Shown here: one piece after another, positions 36,685 to 61,159 of the stretch | How positions within the stretch are numbered: position 1 is the stretch's first letter | Layout: the number at the start of each line of letters is the position of its first letter | Origin: Thermococcus sp. MAR1 | Lineage (GTDB): Archaea > Methanobacteriota_B > Thermococci > Thermococcales > Thermococcaceae | Length of the DNA: 64,000 nucleotides | Assembly (NCBI RefSeq): GCF_012027305.1 | Contig: NZ_SNUF01000001.1 | Location: 992,001 to 1,056,000, forward strand | Direction: 5' to 3' | Made by a program: the position numbers and the translations under genes | Notes under the pieces: model-generated | What the model was told of the DNA's origin: nothing | Seen by the model: only the letters and a program-made list of their open reading frames with translations | Database searches by the model: none

Positions 36685-36703
36685 GCCTTTCAGATGGTCT
36701 TTT

Positions 36704-36764
36704 GGGCGATGGCGTCCGCCCGGGCTTCGAGCCGAACCGCCCGCCGAGGGCTGATGACGCCTGT
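36704..36764 (+). ncRNA. Fluoride riboswitch (crcB motif)
   Basis: The sequence matches the crcB aptamer: GGGCGATGGCGTCCGCCC at the start and GGGCTGATGACGCC near the end. Stem P2 is GGGCG (36704-36708) with CGCCC (36717-36721). P1 is GGCGTC (36711-36716) with GACGCC (36756-36761). P3 is GCCC (36739-36742) with GGGC (36748-36751). The AACC before P3 and CTGATGA after it are conserved-type positions. An extra GC-rich hairpin (about 36722-36734) separates P2 and P3. After the aptamer, a TCTCC run (36765-36769) could pair with the GAGGAGG ribosome binding site of the next gene, which would allow translational control. Fluoride riboswitches are known in bacteria and in Thermococcus. Confidence 0.92.
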
Positions 36765-36794
36765 TCTCCGTCAAAACCTTGAGGAGGCGGTAGA

Positions 36795-56457: not shown

Positions 56458-56922
56458 GTGAGGAAGGTTCTCCCGGTCCTGCTGATATTCCTTCTGATTT
56501 CGGTTGGATACCACCTTGCCTCATCGGGAAACGGGACCTCGGATCTTTCCCCAAAGGACGAACCTGCAGTTACAACGCTCCCTGAAAACCCCATGAAGCT
56601 CGACAAAACCGTCTACTCCCCCAACGACACGATGGTCATGACGATAACCAACAACGGAAACGCCAACTTCACGACGGGCTACGCCTTCAAGCTCTATAAA
56701 CTGGAGAACGGAACGTGGAAGGAGGTTCCGGTGAACCTAATGTTCATAGAGATTGCTATCATAATAGAACCCGGGAAGAGCTGGGAGCAGAGGGTGAAGC
56801 TCTCCAGCCTGAACCTCAAGCCGGGCCATTACAAGATAGAGAAAACCGTAGTGGTTACCGAGCCGGTGAACAAGATGAGCATGGGGATTAAAGCGTGGGC
56901 TGAGTTCGACGTGAGGGGCTGA
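56458..56922 (+). CDS. Secreted Ig-like-domain protein, first of three tandem paralogues
   Basis: The 154-residue precursor has a signal peptide (VLPVLLIFLLISVGYHLA). The mature part is all-beta: DKTVYSPNDTMVMTITNNG, AFKLYKLENGTWKEVPVN, IIEPGKSWEQRVKL and LKPGHYKIEKTVVVTEP. This is the pattern of small immunoglobulin-like sandwich domains found in bacterial and archaeal surface proteins. The GTG start follows AGGTGATG. The next gene overlaps its stop (TGATG) and is a paralogue. Confidence 0.75.
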   Translation: MRKVLPVLLIFLLISVGYHLASSGNGTSDLSPKDEPAVTTLPENPMKLDKTVYSPNDTMVMTITNNGNANFTTGYAFKLYKLENGTWKEVPVNLMFIEIAIIIEPGKSWEQRVKLSSLNLKPGHYKIEKTVVVTEPVNKMSMGIKAWAEFDVRG

Positions 56923-57238
56923 TGATGAAGTCTGTGAATCGGACCCTGGTCGTTTTCGCCGTCTTCATTCTCCTTCTTGGAATCCTCTATGCCGGAACAC
57001 GTGAGAGGGGCAAAAATACACCCCCCAACGCCGGAACCGCCCTCATAAGGCTCGATAAAGGCGTATATCGCGTAGGTGAGGAGCTCAGTCTCACGATAAT
57101 CAACACCGGGAGCGAGACCTTACATTTTTCTTTTGAAAATCCTTGCCCTTCAGGGTGGGGATGCAGGGTTTTTAAAACCGACCTTTGAGCGAGAAAGCAA
57201 CACTTTTTTAAATCCTAAAAATCATACCATACTTTAAG

Positions 57239-58549
57239 ATGAAGCGTTCAGTAACGGTTAAACTCCAGCCGAGCAAGGAGCAAGCAAAAATCCTTTCCGA
57301 ATTAGCCGACTTAGGAGCCAAAGTCTGGAACAGGGTAAATTATTTGAGAAGACAACAATTCTTCGAGGACAAAATCGTGGACTTCAATTCAACCGAGAAA
57401 ACCGCTTATGAAGAATTCAAGCGAGAAATTGGTTCTGCCACAGTTCAACAGATCTGTCGGAAGAACGCTGAAGCCTGGCGTTCATTCTTCTCCCTCCTTC
57501 AGAAGAAACGGAACGGAGAACTTCCCTCATGGCTAAAACCAAAACCACCCAACTACCTCAAGGAAGAGGGGAAGAGAAAACCCTTAATCGTTTTGAGAAA
57601 CGACCAGTACAGGATTGAGGGAAACAGGTTAATCCTCAAAGGCCTCGGCAAGTTCAAAAAACTCGAAATTCAATTCAAGGGAAGAATACACTTGAATGGC
57701 AAGCAAGGGCGCTTAGAAATCACTTACGACCCAGTTAAGAGGAAGTGGTACGCGCACATTAGCCTTACCGTTGATGAAAAATTTGAGGGCGGTGAATGGG
57801 TTAAGCTTCCAAAAACTCCAAAAGGAAACCTTTCAGCTGGAATTGACCTTGGAGTGAACAACTTAATGGCTGTCTATGTTGAAAATGGTGAAAGCTTCCT
57901 CGTGAATGGCAGGCCGTTGAAGAGTATCGATTTCTACTGGCGGAGGAGAATAGCGGAATACCAGTCCAAACTCAACAAGAGTGGGGCGAAAACGAGCAGG
58001 AAGCTCAAGAGAATGCACGAGAAGGCCAAACTTCGGGCAAAACACTACATCAACACTGCTGTGAAGCAAACGGTTAAAAAACTTTATGAACTCGGCGTTT
58101 CGAGGATTGTTGTCGGCTATCCTAAAGGCATAGCGAGGAACTCTGATAAGGATAAAAAGCAGAATTTCCTCCTCTCTTGCGTGTGGCGGTTCAATACGGT
58201 TATCAAACGTTTAAGAGAGGTTGCTGAAGAGTATGGTATTAGCGTTATGGTTGTCAATGAGGCGTTCACTTCGAAAACTTGTCCCGTTTGCGGGAAGCCT
58301 CACGAGGGGGCTCGTTTTGTTCGTGGTTTGTTTAAGTGTCCCGCAACGGGGCTTGTGTTTAACGCGGACTTGGTTGGAGCGTTTAACATTTTGGGGAAAG
58401 TAGTGAAAACGATAACCCCGAGCCTTGAAGGTTTGAAAGCCTTCAAGGTGAGGGGTAACTGGCCTAAGACCAGGCCAGAGGGGTTCGAAGAACCCGCTCT
58501 AAAGGGTTCTCTGATGAGAACCCCTCAAACCTCCTTGCCCTTGAGTTAG
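57239..58549 (+). CDS. tnpB: TnpB RNA-guided endonuclease
   Basis: The 436-residue protein has the IS605 OrfB N terminus (VKLQPSKEQAKILSELADLGAKVWN). The split RuvC site is complete by motif: Asp in SAGIDLGVNNLMAVY, Glu in VVNEAFTSKTCPVCG, and Asp in FNADLVGAFNIL. The zinc finger has CPVCG, but the second pair reads CPATG, with one Cys missing, as in some Thermococcales members. TnpB uses an omega-RNA from the element's 3' end to cut DNA next to a TTAC-like motif, which keeps the element in the population. A TATA-like TTTTTTAAATCC lies about 30 bases upstream. Confidence 0.93.
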   Translation: MKRSVTVKLQPSKEQAKILSELADLGAKVWNRVNYLRRQQFFEDKIVDFNSTEKTAYEEFKREIGSATVQQICRKNAEAWRSFFSLLQKKRNGELPSWLKPKPPNYLKEEGKRKPLIVLRNDQYRIEGNRLILKGLGKFKKLEIQFKGRIHLNGKQGRLEITYDPVKRKWYAHISLTVDEKFEGGEWVKLPKTPKGNLSAGIDLGVNNLMAVYVENGESFLVNGRPLKSIDFYWRRRIAEYQSKLNKSGAKTSRKLKRMHEKAKLRAKHYINTAVKQTVKKLYELGVSRIVVGYPKGIARNSDKDKKQNFLLSCVWRFNTVIKRLREVAEEYGISVMVVNEAFTSKTCPVCGKPHEGARFVRGLFKCPATGLVFNADLVGAFNILGKVVKTITPSLEGLKAFKVRGNWPKTRPEGFEEPALKGSLMRTPQTSLPLS

Positions 58550-58597
58550 GGGGTTCCTCGTTGGAACCCTCGCCCTTCAGGGCAGGGAGGAGGTCAG
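58412..58597 (+). ncRNA. Candidate omega-RNA scaffold of the TnpB element
   Basis: The 3' part of tnpB and the right end form a chain of stems: ACCCC with GGGGT around the hairpin CTTGAAGG/CCTTCAAG, GGGTTC/GAACCC twice, and the terminal GCCC/GGGC. The start ATAACCCCGAGCC and AGGGGTAAC are also kept in the deleted relative at 60717-60849, with a different but still paired inner hairpin. The guide would be the flank starting at 58598. Ends are inferred. Confidence 0.7.
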
Positions 58598-58874
58598 TCG
58601 TGGGTGCCTCGTACAGGCTCTACCGCCTGGAAAACGGGAGATGGGAAGAACTCAACCTCGGGTTCTCGTTCACTGGTATAGGCTACACGATACCTCCCGG
58701 CAGTAACTGGAGCCAAACCGTGCCCCTCGTTACACACGTTTCTGACGGTGCCGGGAAGCTTGAGCCGTTGCCGCCCGGTAGGTACAGGATTACAAAGACC
58801 GTCATCATCGACAGGGGACGCTGCGGGAGGGGGAGCAGTGAGATAACCCTCTCCGCTGAGTTCGAGGTGGTCGG

Positions 58875-59113
58875 ATGAGGTGGAAGACCGGCGCCGGAAT
58901 CGTCGTCCTGATGCTCCTCCTCTGGGAACTCACGGTTCCACTTCATGATGAGCCTCGATAAGTCCAGGTATTCAGCCGGGGAAGAGCCGGAACTGAGGGT
59001 AAGGAACGTCGGTCTGACGCCCGTCAGTCCCGGGGATACAGGCTCGTGAAGGAAATCTGCGGTGGCCCCTGGGATGCAGAAACGCGAGCGTGGAGTTTGA
59101 GGTTAGGGGTTGA
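58875..59113 (+). pseudogene. Third paralogue, degenerate
   Basis: The ATG overlaps the preceding stop (ATGA). A signal-peptide-like start is followed by a stop; another frame then reads LDKSRYSAGEEPELRVRNVG, the family's first strands. The last codons are VEFEVRG and a stop, as in the first paralogue. The middle is shortened and frames are broken. It is a dead copy of the tandem family. Confidence 0.65.
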
Positions 59114-60605: not shown

Positions 60606-60716
60606 AGGGTTGTGGGAAAGCTGCGGGAGAGGACTACCACCAGAGTGCACCAGGAGGCTGTGAAGCGACTGATAAGCCTCGCGCTTGAAGACCCATCGGG
60701 AAAGAATGGGTGGGCC

Positions 60717-60849
60717 TGACCTCCTCCCCGCCGTGAAGGGGCGGTTCGGTTTGCGGGCCCATCACCTACTCCCCTCGCGAGTTTCGGCTCAGCCCGCAGG
60801 CCCGGTCTCGGGCTCGTTACCCCTACCGGCAAAGCCGGCTCGGGGTTAT
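60717..60849 (-). ncRNA. Candidate omega-RNA scaffold of the deleted element
   Basis: The minus strand begins ATAACCCCGAGCC (60849-60837), has the hairpin GCCGGC-TTT-GCCGGT where the intact element has CTTGAAGG/CCTTCAAG, then AGGGGTAAC, GCCCGAGACCGGGC and the same terminal hairpin. The bases differ but pairing is kept, which is evidence for a selected RNA fold. The guide, on the minus strand, would be the flank before 60717. Expression is not shown. Confidence 0.55.
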
Positions 60850-61094
60850 TGCTCAAAGGCCACCCTTCAGAGTTTTTGACTGCCCAACGAGCAGTCATTG
60901 AAAGGACGCTTAACAACGTCAACCCTCCAATGCTGGAAGGTAACGGGAAACCCCTTCTAGTGGGGTTGTTTTACGACGACCTCTTCGAGGCCTTATTACG
61001 CTGGTAAGACTTAAAAAGGTTTCGGGTGTTTAATTGCCCGTTGGGCTGATCATTGCATCCCCGCCGTGAACGGCAAGGCTTTCAAAAGAAAAAT
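60717..61094 (-). mobile_element. Internally deleted IS605-type element, tnpB lost
   Basis: Minus strand: next to TTAC (61095-61098) the left end reads ATTTTTCTTTTGAAAGCC and continues through GGCGGGGATGCA. The right end has CCCCTTCACGGCGGGGAGGA and then GGTCA, ending at 60717. These match the ends of the TnpB element at 57124-58597 with few changes. The element is 378 bp, and its middle (about 60850-61050) does not resemble tnpB. The end with omega-RNA features is kept. Confidence 0.82.
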
Positions 61095-61159
61095 GTAATC
61101 CCCATGCACGAGGCACTCCGGATAAAACTGAAAGGCCTCTTCTGAATCAACCCCTGGCA

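What the first reader, a model, noticed from the sequence alone, without database searches (positions are those of the whole stretch)
58412..58597. Omega-RNA fold supported by paired changes between two element copies
The intact element and the deleted one at 60717-61094 share ATAACCCCGAGCC, AGGGGTAAC and the terminal GGAGGAGGTCA. Between these the inner hairpin differs in sequence (CTTGAAGG/CCTTCAAG versus GCCGGC/GCCGGT) but stays paired, inside the same ACCCC/GGGGT stem. Such compensatory change indicates selection on RNA, even though in the intact copy the region also codes for the TnpB C terminus.
Basis: partly seen in the sequence, partly recalled or inferred. Interest (0 to 1): 0.65.

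Follow-up and report, generated by a model that had tools for sequence, protein, structure and literature searches.

The report
TnpB guide RNA in mobile elements
The end of this jumping-gene element encodes a folded guide RNA (an omega-RNA) whose shape evolution has preserved by paired mutations, and its 'deleted' neighbour belongs to a widespread archaeal family of tiny elements that have no protein gene but keep the same guide-RNA fold.

Summary
Confirmed and extended. Window 57124-58597 is an IS200/IS605-type TnpB element (target TTAC; boundaries confirmed by empty sites in other genomes). Its last 186 nt (58412-58597) fold into an omega-RNA scaffold. In 75 related copies, hairpin 58460-58465/58472-58477 covaries beyond a phylogeny-aware null. 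The outer ACCCC/GGGGT stem is nearly invariant, so uninformative. TnpB codons do not force the structure: about 0.1% of synonymous versions fold as well. Two Rfam families hit it: HgcC (RF00062, above cut-off) and, below cut-off, haloarchaeal sot0042 (RF02656). HgcC RNAs are reported transcribed from transposase genes in Thermococcus kodakarensis; I found no paper linking HgcC to TnpB. Correction: the 'deleted' copy (60716-61094, minus) is not a simple deletion of the TnpB element. It belongs to a ~375-415-nt non-coding family (69 full-length copies here; six genera of the order) with a promoter-like motif, a conserved 5' structured domain and the same omega-RNA fold. Most likely these TnpB-less elements supply a guide RNA in trans; that step is inferred, not shown. 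The omega-RNA is a known kind; the stand-alone carriers are the newer part.

The parts
57120..57123 (+). TTAC target tetranucleotide (predicted TAM) left of the intact element
   Evidence: TTAC or TTTAC precedes most left ends that could be located; uninterrupted TTAC|TCGTGGG found gap-free in L229, L230, L232
57124..58597 (+). IS200/IS605-type TnpB element, left end ATTTTTCTTTTGAAA, right end GGAGGAGGTCAG; interrupts a gene
   Evidence: uninterrupted matches across the site in other genomes, base-level boundaries in L229/L230/L232
57239..58549 (+). tnpB, 436 aa; Pfam OrfB_IS605 and Cas12f1-like_TNB; canonical RuvC-II Glu position is Gly (VVGYPKG), conserved Glu six residues before the zinc finger (EAFTSKTC)
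   Evidence: RegEx of PMC10711439
58412..58597 (+). omega-RNA scaffold region (3' end of tnpB plus right end)
   Evidence: fold z = -10.95; covariation; Rfam RF00062 at 58458-58610 and RF02656 at 58410-58588
58415..58456 (+). outer stem P1: 58415-58419 with 58452-58456 (ACCCC/GGGGT)
   Evidence: 99.2% paired but nearly invariant: structure plausible, not tested by covariation
   Evidence: 98.8% paired in 40 homologues, double changes at 3 of 8 pairs; p = 0.0019, 0.007, 0.021 per pair on tree null; halves re-dealt lose 4.3 kcal/mol, >10 sd
58460..58477 (+). hairpin 2: 58460-58465 with 58472-58477, loop AAGACC
   Evidence: strongest covariation: CG/GC/GU/UA exchanges, E = 0 and 0.005 on tree null, 23-33 double-changed sequences at 4 of 6 pairs
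58478..58526 (+). hairpin 3: 58478-58486 with 58518-58526
   Evidence: 5 of 7 counted pairs have double changes, 94.5% paired
58530..58590 (+). terminal stem and subterminal right-end hairpin; the hairpin is also the likely single-strand DNA signal for TnpA
   Evidence: MFE fold; shared with left end and with ~46-bp terminal-only elements
58592..58595 (+). GGTC just before the end of the element, complementary to the GACC/GGCC in the loop of hairpin 2 (candidate pseudoknot with the transposon-end motif)
   Evidence: 4 of 4 pairs in 62/66 TnpB copies and 57/66 TnpB-less copies
58598..58617 (+). predicted guide: host sequence 3' of the right end (TCGTGGGTGCCTCGTACAGG)
   Evidence: position by analogy with ISDra2 (PMC8612924); matches the empty site next to TTAC
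60716..61094 (-). TnpB-less element (379 nt) of a 375-415-nt non-coding family; TTAC target at 61095-61098
   Evidence: 69 full-length family members; no tnpB homology; empty site in G001, 97% identical
60990..61030 (-). promoter-like motif CGAAACCTTTTTAAG (archaeal BRE/TATA) of the TnpB-less element, approximate position
   Evidence: motif at the same place in 36/69 copies by a strict pattern, 0.5% in shuffles
60716..60849 (-). omega-RNA-like 3' domain of the TnpB-less element (ATAACCCCGAGCCGGCTTTGCCGGTAGGGGT...GGTCAG)
   Evidence: full-length nhmmer match to the omega-RNA profile; compensatory pairs across 69 copies
60850..60990 (-). 5' structured domain found only in the TnpB-less family (five conserved hairpins)
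   Evidence: fold of whole RNA z = -3.29

Best explanation
58412-58597 encodes the scaffold of the omega-RNA (reRNA) of a TnpB RNA-guided nuclease. The RNA is transcribed in the sense direction with, or from within, tnpB and ends in host sequence that serves as guide. TnpB plus this RNA would cleave the TTAC-flanked joint left when the element is excised, so that the element is copied back. The hairpins are what TnpB binds, so selection preserves pairing while sequence drifts. Shown here: element boundaries, the fold, covariation, independence from the protein code, Rfam membership. Inferred from characterised TnpB systems: binding, processing, guide use and cleavage. The second element is a TnpB-less relative that keeps the same RNA module behind its own promoter-like motif and most likely uses TnpB and TnpA encoded elsewhere in the genome.
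For:: fold and pair counts; covariation above a tree-based null at hairpin 2; only about 0.1% of synonymous recodings fold as well over the whole coding part (61 sequences, median z -4.95), about 2% for outer stem plus inner hairpin; within the ORF the strongest signal lies in the 3' end (58355-58546, z -3 to -4). RF00062 above cut-off; RF02656 over its full length at E = 3.8e-4, though below its cut-off. (PMC4247193): HgcC RNAs start inside transposase genes, same sense, in T. kodakarensis. TTAC boundaries; loop-to-end complementarity as described for haloarchaeal omega-RNAs. G-U pairs are common in hairpin 2 on the sense strand (about 63 cells) while unpaired cells are few (14 in 450), which points to sense-strand RNA rather than antisense RNA or DNA; a Y1 TnpA gene next to an 88% identical tnpB in the same genome. 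TnpB-less elements co-occur with close TnpB (22/25 against 16/36 genomes, Fisher p = 6e-4).
Against: No transcript, TnpB binding or cleavage was tested. The tree-null test also flags some column pairs that are not base pairs (e.g. 58486/58516, 58547/58555), so subfamily linkage is not fully removed; the claim rests on hairpin 2 being strongest and on the other controls. The inner hairpin alone does not reach alignment-wide significance pair by pair. In the TnpB-less family only one pair passes E < 0.05. Three genomes hold TnpB-less copies without a close TnpB. PMC4247193 reports the P. furiosus HgcC transcript as antisense to its transposase gene.
Confidence: 0.92

Rival explanations
1. The pairing is selected at the DNA level: hairpins recognised on single-stranded DNA by the Y1 transposase TnpA, not an RNA.
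For: The subterminal left and right hairpins are shared by both ends and by ~46-bp terminal-only elements, as expected of TnpA signals; TnpA is present in the genome.
Against: Outer stem, inner hairpin, hairpin 2 and hairpin 3 lie inside the element and are absent from the terminal-only elements, which are nevertheless numerous (whether they moved in that form is not known). G-U pairs are frequent on the sense strand. HgcC RNA is reported transcribed.
Confidence: 0.05
2. The apparent pairing is a by-product of the TnpB C-terminal protein sequence.
For: The region is translated in frame and reads ITP(N/S)L...RGN in most TnpB copies.
Against: Synonymous recoding destroys the structure; amino acids change along with the pairing; the TnpB-less family, with stops at many positions and no shared frame, keeps the fold.
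Confidence: 0.02
3. The TnpB-less elements encode an RNA with its own function, e.g. a regulator using the flanking sequence as guide or a TnpB decoy, rather than a helper for element maintenance.
For: They have a conserved 5' structured domain that TnpB elements lack and a promoter-like motif; three genomes hold them without a close TnpB.
Against: They are multicopy with left and right ends and TTAC sites like the TnpB elements, occur mostly with TnpB, and keep the loop-to-end complementarity expected of a TnpB guide.
Confidence: 0.2
4. The 60716-61094 element is a plain internal-deletion derivative of the TnpB element, and the shared fold is leftover sequence.
For: Both ends and the omega-RNA module are homologous to the TnpB element; terminal-only derivatives by repeat-mediated deletion are known in haloarchaea (PMC3119063).
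Against: The interior between the ends shows no tnpB homology and is conserved as structured RNA across 69 copies and several genera; leftover sequence would decay.
Confidence: 0.08

Closest known systems
TnpB reRNA/omega-RNA of ISDra2 (Karvelis et al. 2021, PMC8612924)
   Same: RNA from the 3' end of tnpB plus right end, ending in flanking host sequence; insertion 3' of a short motif; proposed donor-joint cleavage
   Different: TTAC here (the IS608 motif) rather than TTGAT; archaeal hyperthermophile; TnpB with alternative RuvC glutamate; no biochemistry yet
HgcC RNA (Rfam RF00062)
   Same: 51 bits, above the gathering score, at 58458-58610; reported transcribed from transposase genes in T. 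kodakarensis
   Different: The Rfam model starts after the outer stem and inner hairpin, covers the 3' part only and runs ~13 nt into host flank; I found no paper equating it with a TnpB guide
Haloarchaeal sense-overlapping transcripts sot0042 (RF02656), called omega-RNAs in PMC12558985
   Same: Full-length match 58410-58588 including outer stem, inner hairpin and hairpin 2, E = 3.8e-4; loop-to-end pseudoknot described there
   Different: 26 bits, far below its cut-off of 88: a distant relative, not a member
PATEs of Haloquadratum (PMC3119063)
   Same: Short IS605-related elements without genes; [quoted passage not shown] 52-bp terminal-only forms
   Different: Thermococcales, own promoter-like motif and a separate 5' structured domain; described in 2011 without the guide-RNA idea
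RAGATH-18 RNAs of IS607 TnpB (PMC11061315)
   Same: An orphan conserved RNA family later shown to be a TnpB guide
   Different: IS607 family, a different RNA motif, and shown by experiment

Membership tests
TnpB omega-RNA (reRNA) | Lies at the 3' end of tnpB and runs to the element's right end | tested here: met
   58412-58597 overlaps the tnpB 3' end; right boundary fixed by empty sites
TnpB omega-RNA (reRNA) | Conserved RNA secondary structure supported by covariation | tested here: met
   codon control
TnpB omega-RNA (reRNA) | Guide is the host sequence directly 3' of the right end, next to a TAM equal to the insertion target | tested here: inconclusive
   Sequence arrangement is right (TTAC plus flank equals the empty site); guide use not testable here
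TnpB omega-RNA (reRNA) | Pseudoknot between a hairpin loop and the end motif before the guide | tested here: inconclusive
   GACC/GGTC complementarity in 62/66 and 57/66 copies, but nearly invariant, so no covariation test
TnpB omega-RNA (reRNA) | Expressed RNA that binds TnpB and directs cleavage | not testable with these tools
   Only literature on homologous HgcC transcripts
HgcC RNA (RF00062) | Score above the curated cut-off | tested here: met
   51 bits against 50
sot0042 (RF02656) | Score above the curated cut-off | tested here: not met
   26.2 bits against 88, though full length and E = 3.8e-4
IS200/IS605 element | Inserts 3' of a short motif without target duplication; subterminal hairpins; Y1 TnpA available | tested here: met
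   TTAC, no duplication; shared end hairpins; TnpA next to an 88% identical tnpB elsewhere in the genome. The window copy itself has no tnpA
TnpB nuclease | OrfB/RuvC and zinc-finger domains with three acidic residues | tested here: met
   Pfam hits, closest solved chains are TnpB and Cas12f; D, alternative E and D present in the window protein and in relatives where scored. Activity not tested
PATE | Too short for a transposase gene, near-terminal palindromes, no target duplication | tested here: met
   60716-61094 and its relatives
PATE derived by core deletion | Interior is a remnant of the parent element | tested here: not met
   5' interior has no tnpB homology

The most novel reading that the evidence does not exclude
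The ~375-415-nt TnpB-less elements of Thermococcales are stand-alone guide-RNA transposons: each carries its own promoter and a two-domain RNA (a new 5' structured domain joined to the TnpB scaffold), and lives by lending its guide to TnpB and TnpA made by other elements. It follows that the HgcC RNAs of hyperthermophiles, long without a function, are TnpB guide RNAs.
Probability: 0.5. Interest if true: 0.65.

Novelty: new variant of a known kind. Interest (0 to 1): 0.5.

Why it matters
It gives a likely identity to HgcC, an orphan archaeal RNA family known for two decades, and shows by a double control (a coding and a non-coding lineage with one fold) that TnpB guide RNAs are selected as RNA. 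The TnpB-less carriers would make a sharp test of whether guide RNAs work in trans for elements that have no nuclease of their own, in genetically tractable hosts such as Thermococcus kodakarensis.

Tried and rejected
Plain motif scans for the right end were too noisy and were replaced by profile searches. RNAalifold on the whole TnpB-less element with unlimited span gave a poor fold dominated by end-to-end pairing; limiting the span gave the hairpins. The apparent covariation of alignment columns 17/35 was rejected: it is a register shift between two hairpin types, not a base pair; gap-free subsets were used instead. Protein-driven pairing rejected. The simple-deletion reading of the second element rejected. 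One structure string had the wrong length. No paper joins HgcC with TnpB in the searchable library; subscription papers are not covered, so priority cannot be settled.

Full report
OBSERVATION. The 186 nt at 58412-58597 fold at -112.1 kcal/mol, z = -10.95 against dinucleotide shuffles: outer stem 58415-58419/58452-58456, inner hairpin 58422-58433/58438-58449, hairpin 2 58460-58465/58472-58477, hairpin 3 58478-58486/58518-58526, and a long terminal stem.

ELEMENT. The ORF 57239-58549 is TnpB (Pfam OrfB_IS605 and Cas12f1-like_TNB; nearest solved chains are TnpB and Cas12f). Joined flanks match uninterrupted sites in other genomes base for base, giving TTAC^ATTTTTC...GGTCAG^TCGTGG, so the element is 57124-58597 and inserts after TTAC without duplication. 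For the minus-strand copy the same test gives 60716-61094 with an empty site in G001. The genome also has a Y1 TnpA gene beside an 88% identical tnpB, so transposase is available in trans.

COVARIATION. I collected 75 homologues of 58412-58596. RNAalifold on the MAFFT alignment recovers the outer stem, part of the inner hairpin, hairpin 2 and hairpin 3. On counted structure (22 pairs), 97.0% of cells pair against 86.2 +/- 0.5 shuffled, covariation is 0.301 against 0.116 +/- 0.007, and sliding the partner drops pairing to 32-65%. Because shuffles ignore relatedness, I wrote a tree-based null (substitutions kept per branch, positions re-dealt). In 43 gap-free TnpB copies hairpin 2 pairs reach E = 0 and 0.005; inner-hairpin pairs have p = 0.0019, 0.007 and 0.021. 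In 40 such copies the inner hairpin is 98.8% paired, with double changes at three pairs. The outer stem hardly varies, so it is neither supported nor contradicted. Some non-pair columns also score high in this test, so I do not lean on it alone.

CODING CONTROL. In 61 TnpB copies, synonymous recoding keeps the protein but loses the fold: whole coding part median z -4.95, about 0.1% of recodings as stable; outer stem plus inner hairpin about 2% as stable. A scan along the window ORF shows the strongest signal at 58355-58546. Amino acids follow the RNA: WPKTGP/WPKTRP versus GGKTLP.

WHAT IT IS. Rfam HgcC (RF00062) matches at 58458-58610, above cut-off. Haloarchaeal sot0042 (RF02656) matches full length at 58410-58588, E = 3.8e-4 but below its cut-off; these sot RNAs are treated as omega-RNAs in PMC12558985. 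PMC4247193 reports HgcC RNAs of T. kodakarensis starting inside transposase genes TK0298, TK0495 and TK0850 in the same direction, and two (HgcC4, HgcC5) without a transposase gene. Genome G011, whose contig length (2,088,737 bp) I recognise from memory as T. kodakarensis, has three TnpB copies and, at the places expected for HgcC4 and HgcC5, one truncated TnpB-less element (L088) and one terminal-only element (L062); this identification is inference. Direction: G-U pairs are common on the sense strand in hairpin 2, favouring sense RNA. The GACC or GGCC in the loop of hairpin 2 is complementary to GGTC before the guide in 62/66 TnpB copies and 57/66 TnpB-less copies, matching the pseudoknot described for haloarchaeal omega-RNAs.

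THE SECOND ELEMENT. The 60716-61094 element belongs to a family of 69 full-length copies, most ~375-415 nt, in the genomes sampled; matches to it occur in six genera of the order. It shares ends and the omega-RNA module with TnpB elements, but its interior has no tnpB homology and no conserved reading frame. It has an archaeal promoter-like motif at a fixed place in at least 36/69 copies, 0.5% in shuffles, five extra hairpins in the 5' part and the same 3' fold, with compensatory exchanges such as CG34/UA14/UG12/GC5. Its tree-null support is weaker: one pair under E = 0.05. The family occurs mostly with close TnpB (22/25 genomes against 16/36 without the family, p = 6e-4, not corrected for relatedness). 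A third class, ~46-bp left end-right end fusions, is also abundant. Comparable classes were described as PATEs in Haloquadratum in 2011, before guide RNAs were known.

MECHANISM. Following ISDra2 (PMC8612924), the RNA ends in flanking host sequence, TnpB binds the scaffold and cleaves the TTAC-flanked donor joint, which promotes re-copying of the element. For the TnpB-less elements I infer use of TnpB and TnpA in trans. TnpB here lacks the canonical RuvC-II glutamate and keeps one six residues before the zinc finger in the members scored, the alternative arrangement of PMC10711439, so it is likely active rather than dead, but that was not tested.

VERDICT. The omega-RNA is a known kind; its identity with HgcC and the stand-alone carriers are the newer parts.

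Noticed in passing
L046, L044, L098, L067, L058 and others; pattern matches in 44 of 61 genomes: About 46-bp terminal-only elements (TTAC + ATTTTTCTTTTGAAAGCCTCGCCCTTYAGGGCGGGGAGGAGGTCAG), left end fused to right end at the shared hairpin; the pattern (which also matches some full-length right ends) occurs up to 30 times per genome, reversed-pattern control zero.
   Followed up: partly
57239-58549: TnpB family with Gly at the canonical RuvC-II glutamate and a conserved alternative Glu six residues before the zinc finger.
   Followed up: partly
L226 (G000:C1:634566-634922, minus): Y1 TnpA gene directly upstream of an 88% identical tnpB in the same genome: a complete two-gene element.
   Followed up: partly
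56922-57123 and 58598-58878: Gene interrupted by the intact element; the uninterrupted gene is present in several other Thermococcus genomes, and a similar gene lies just upstream at 56458-56922.
   Followed up: yes
36696-36770: Fluoride riboswitch (RF01734), above cut-off.
   Followed up: no
L010 (G035:C1:1593386-1596487): HgcC hit with the same right-end motif but unrelated upstream sequence; another variant or a different TnpB subfamily.
   Followed up: no
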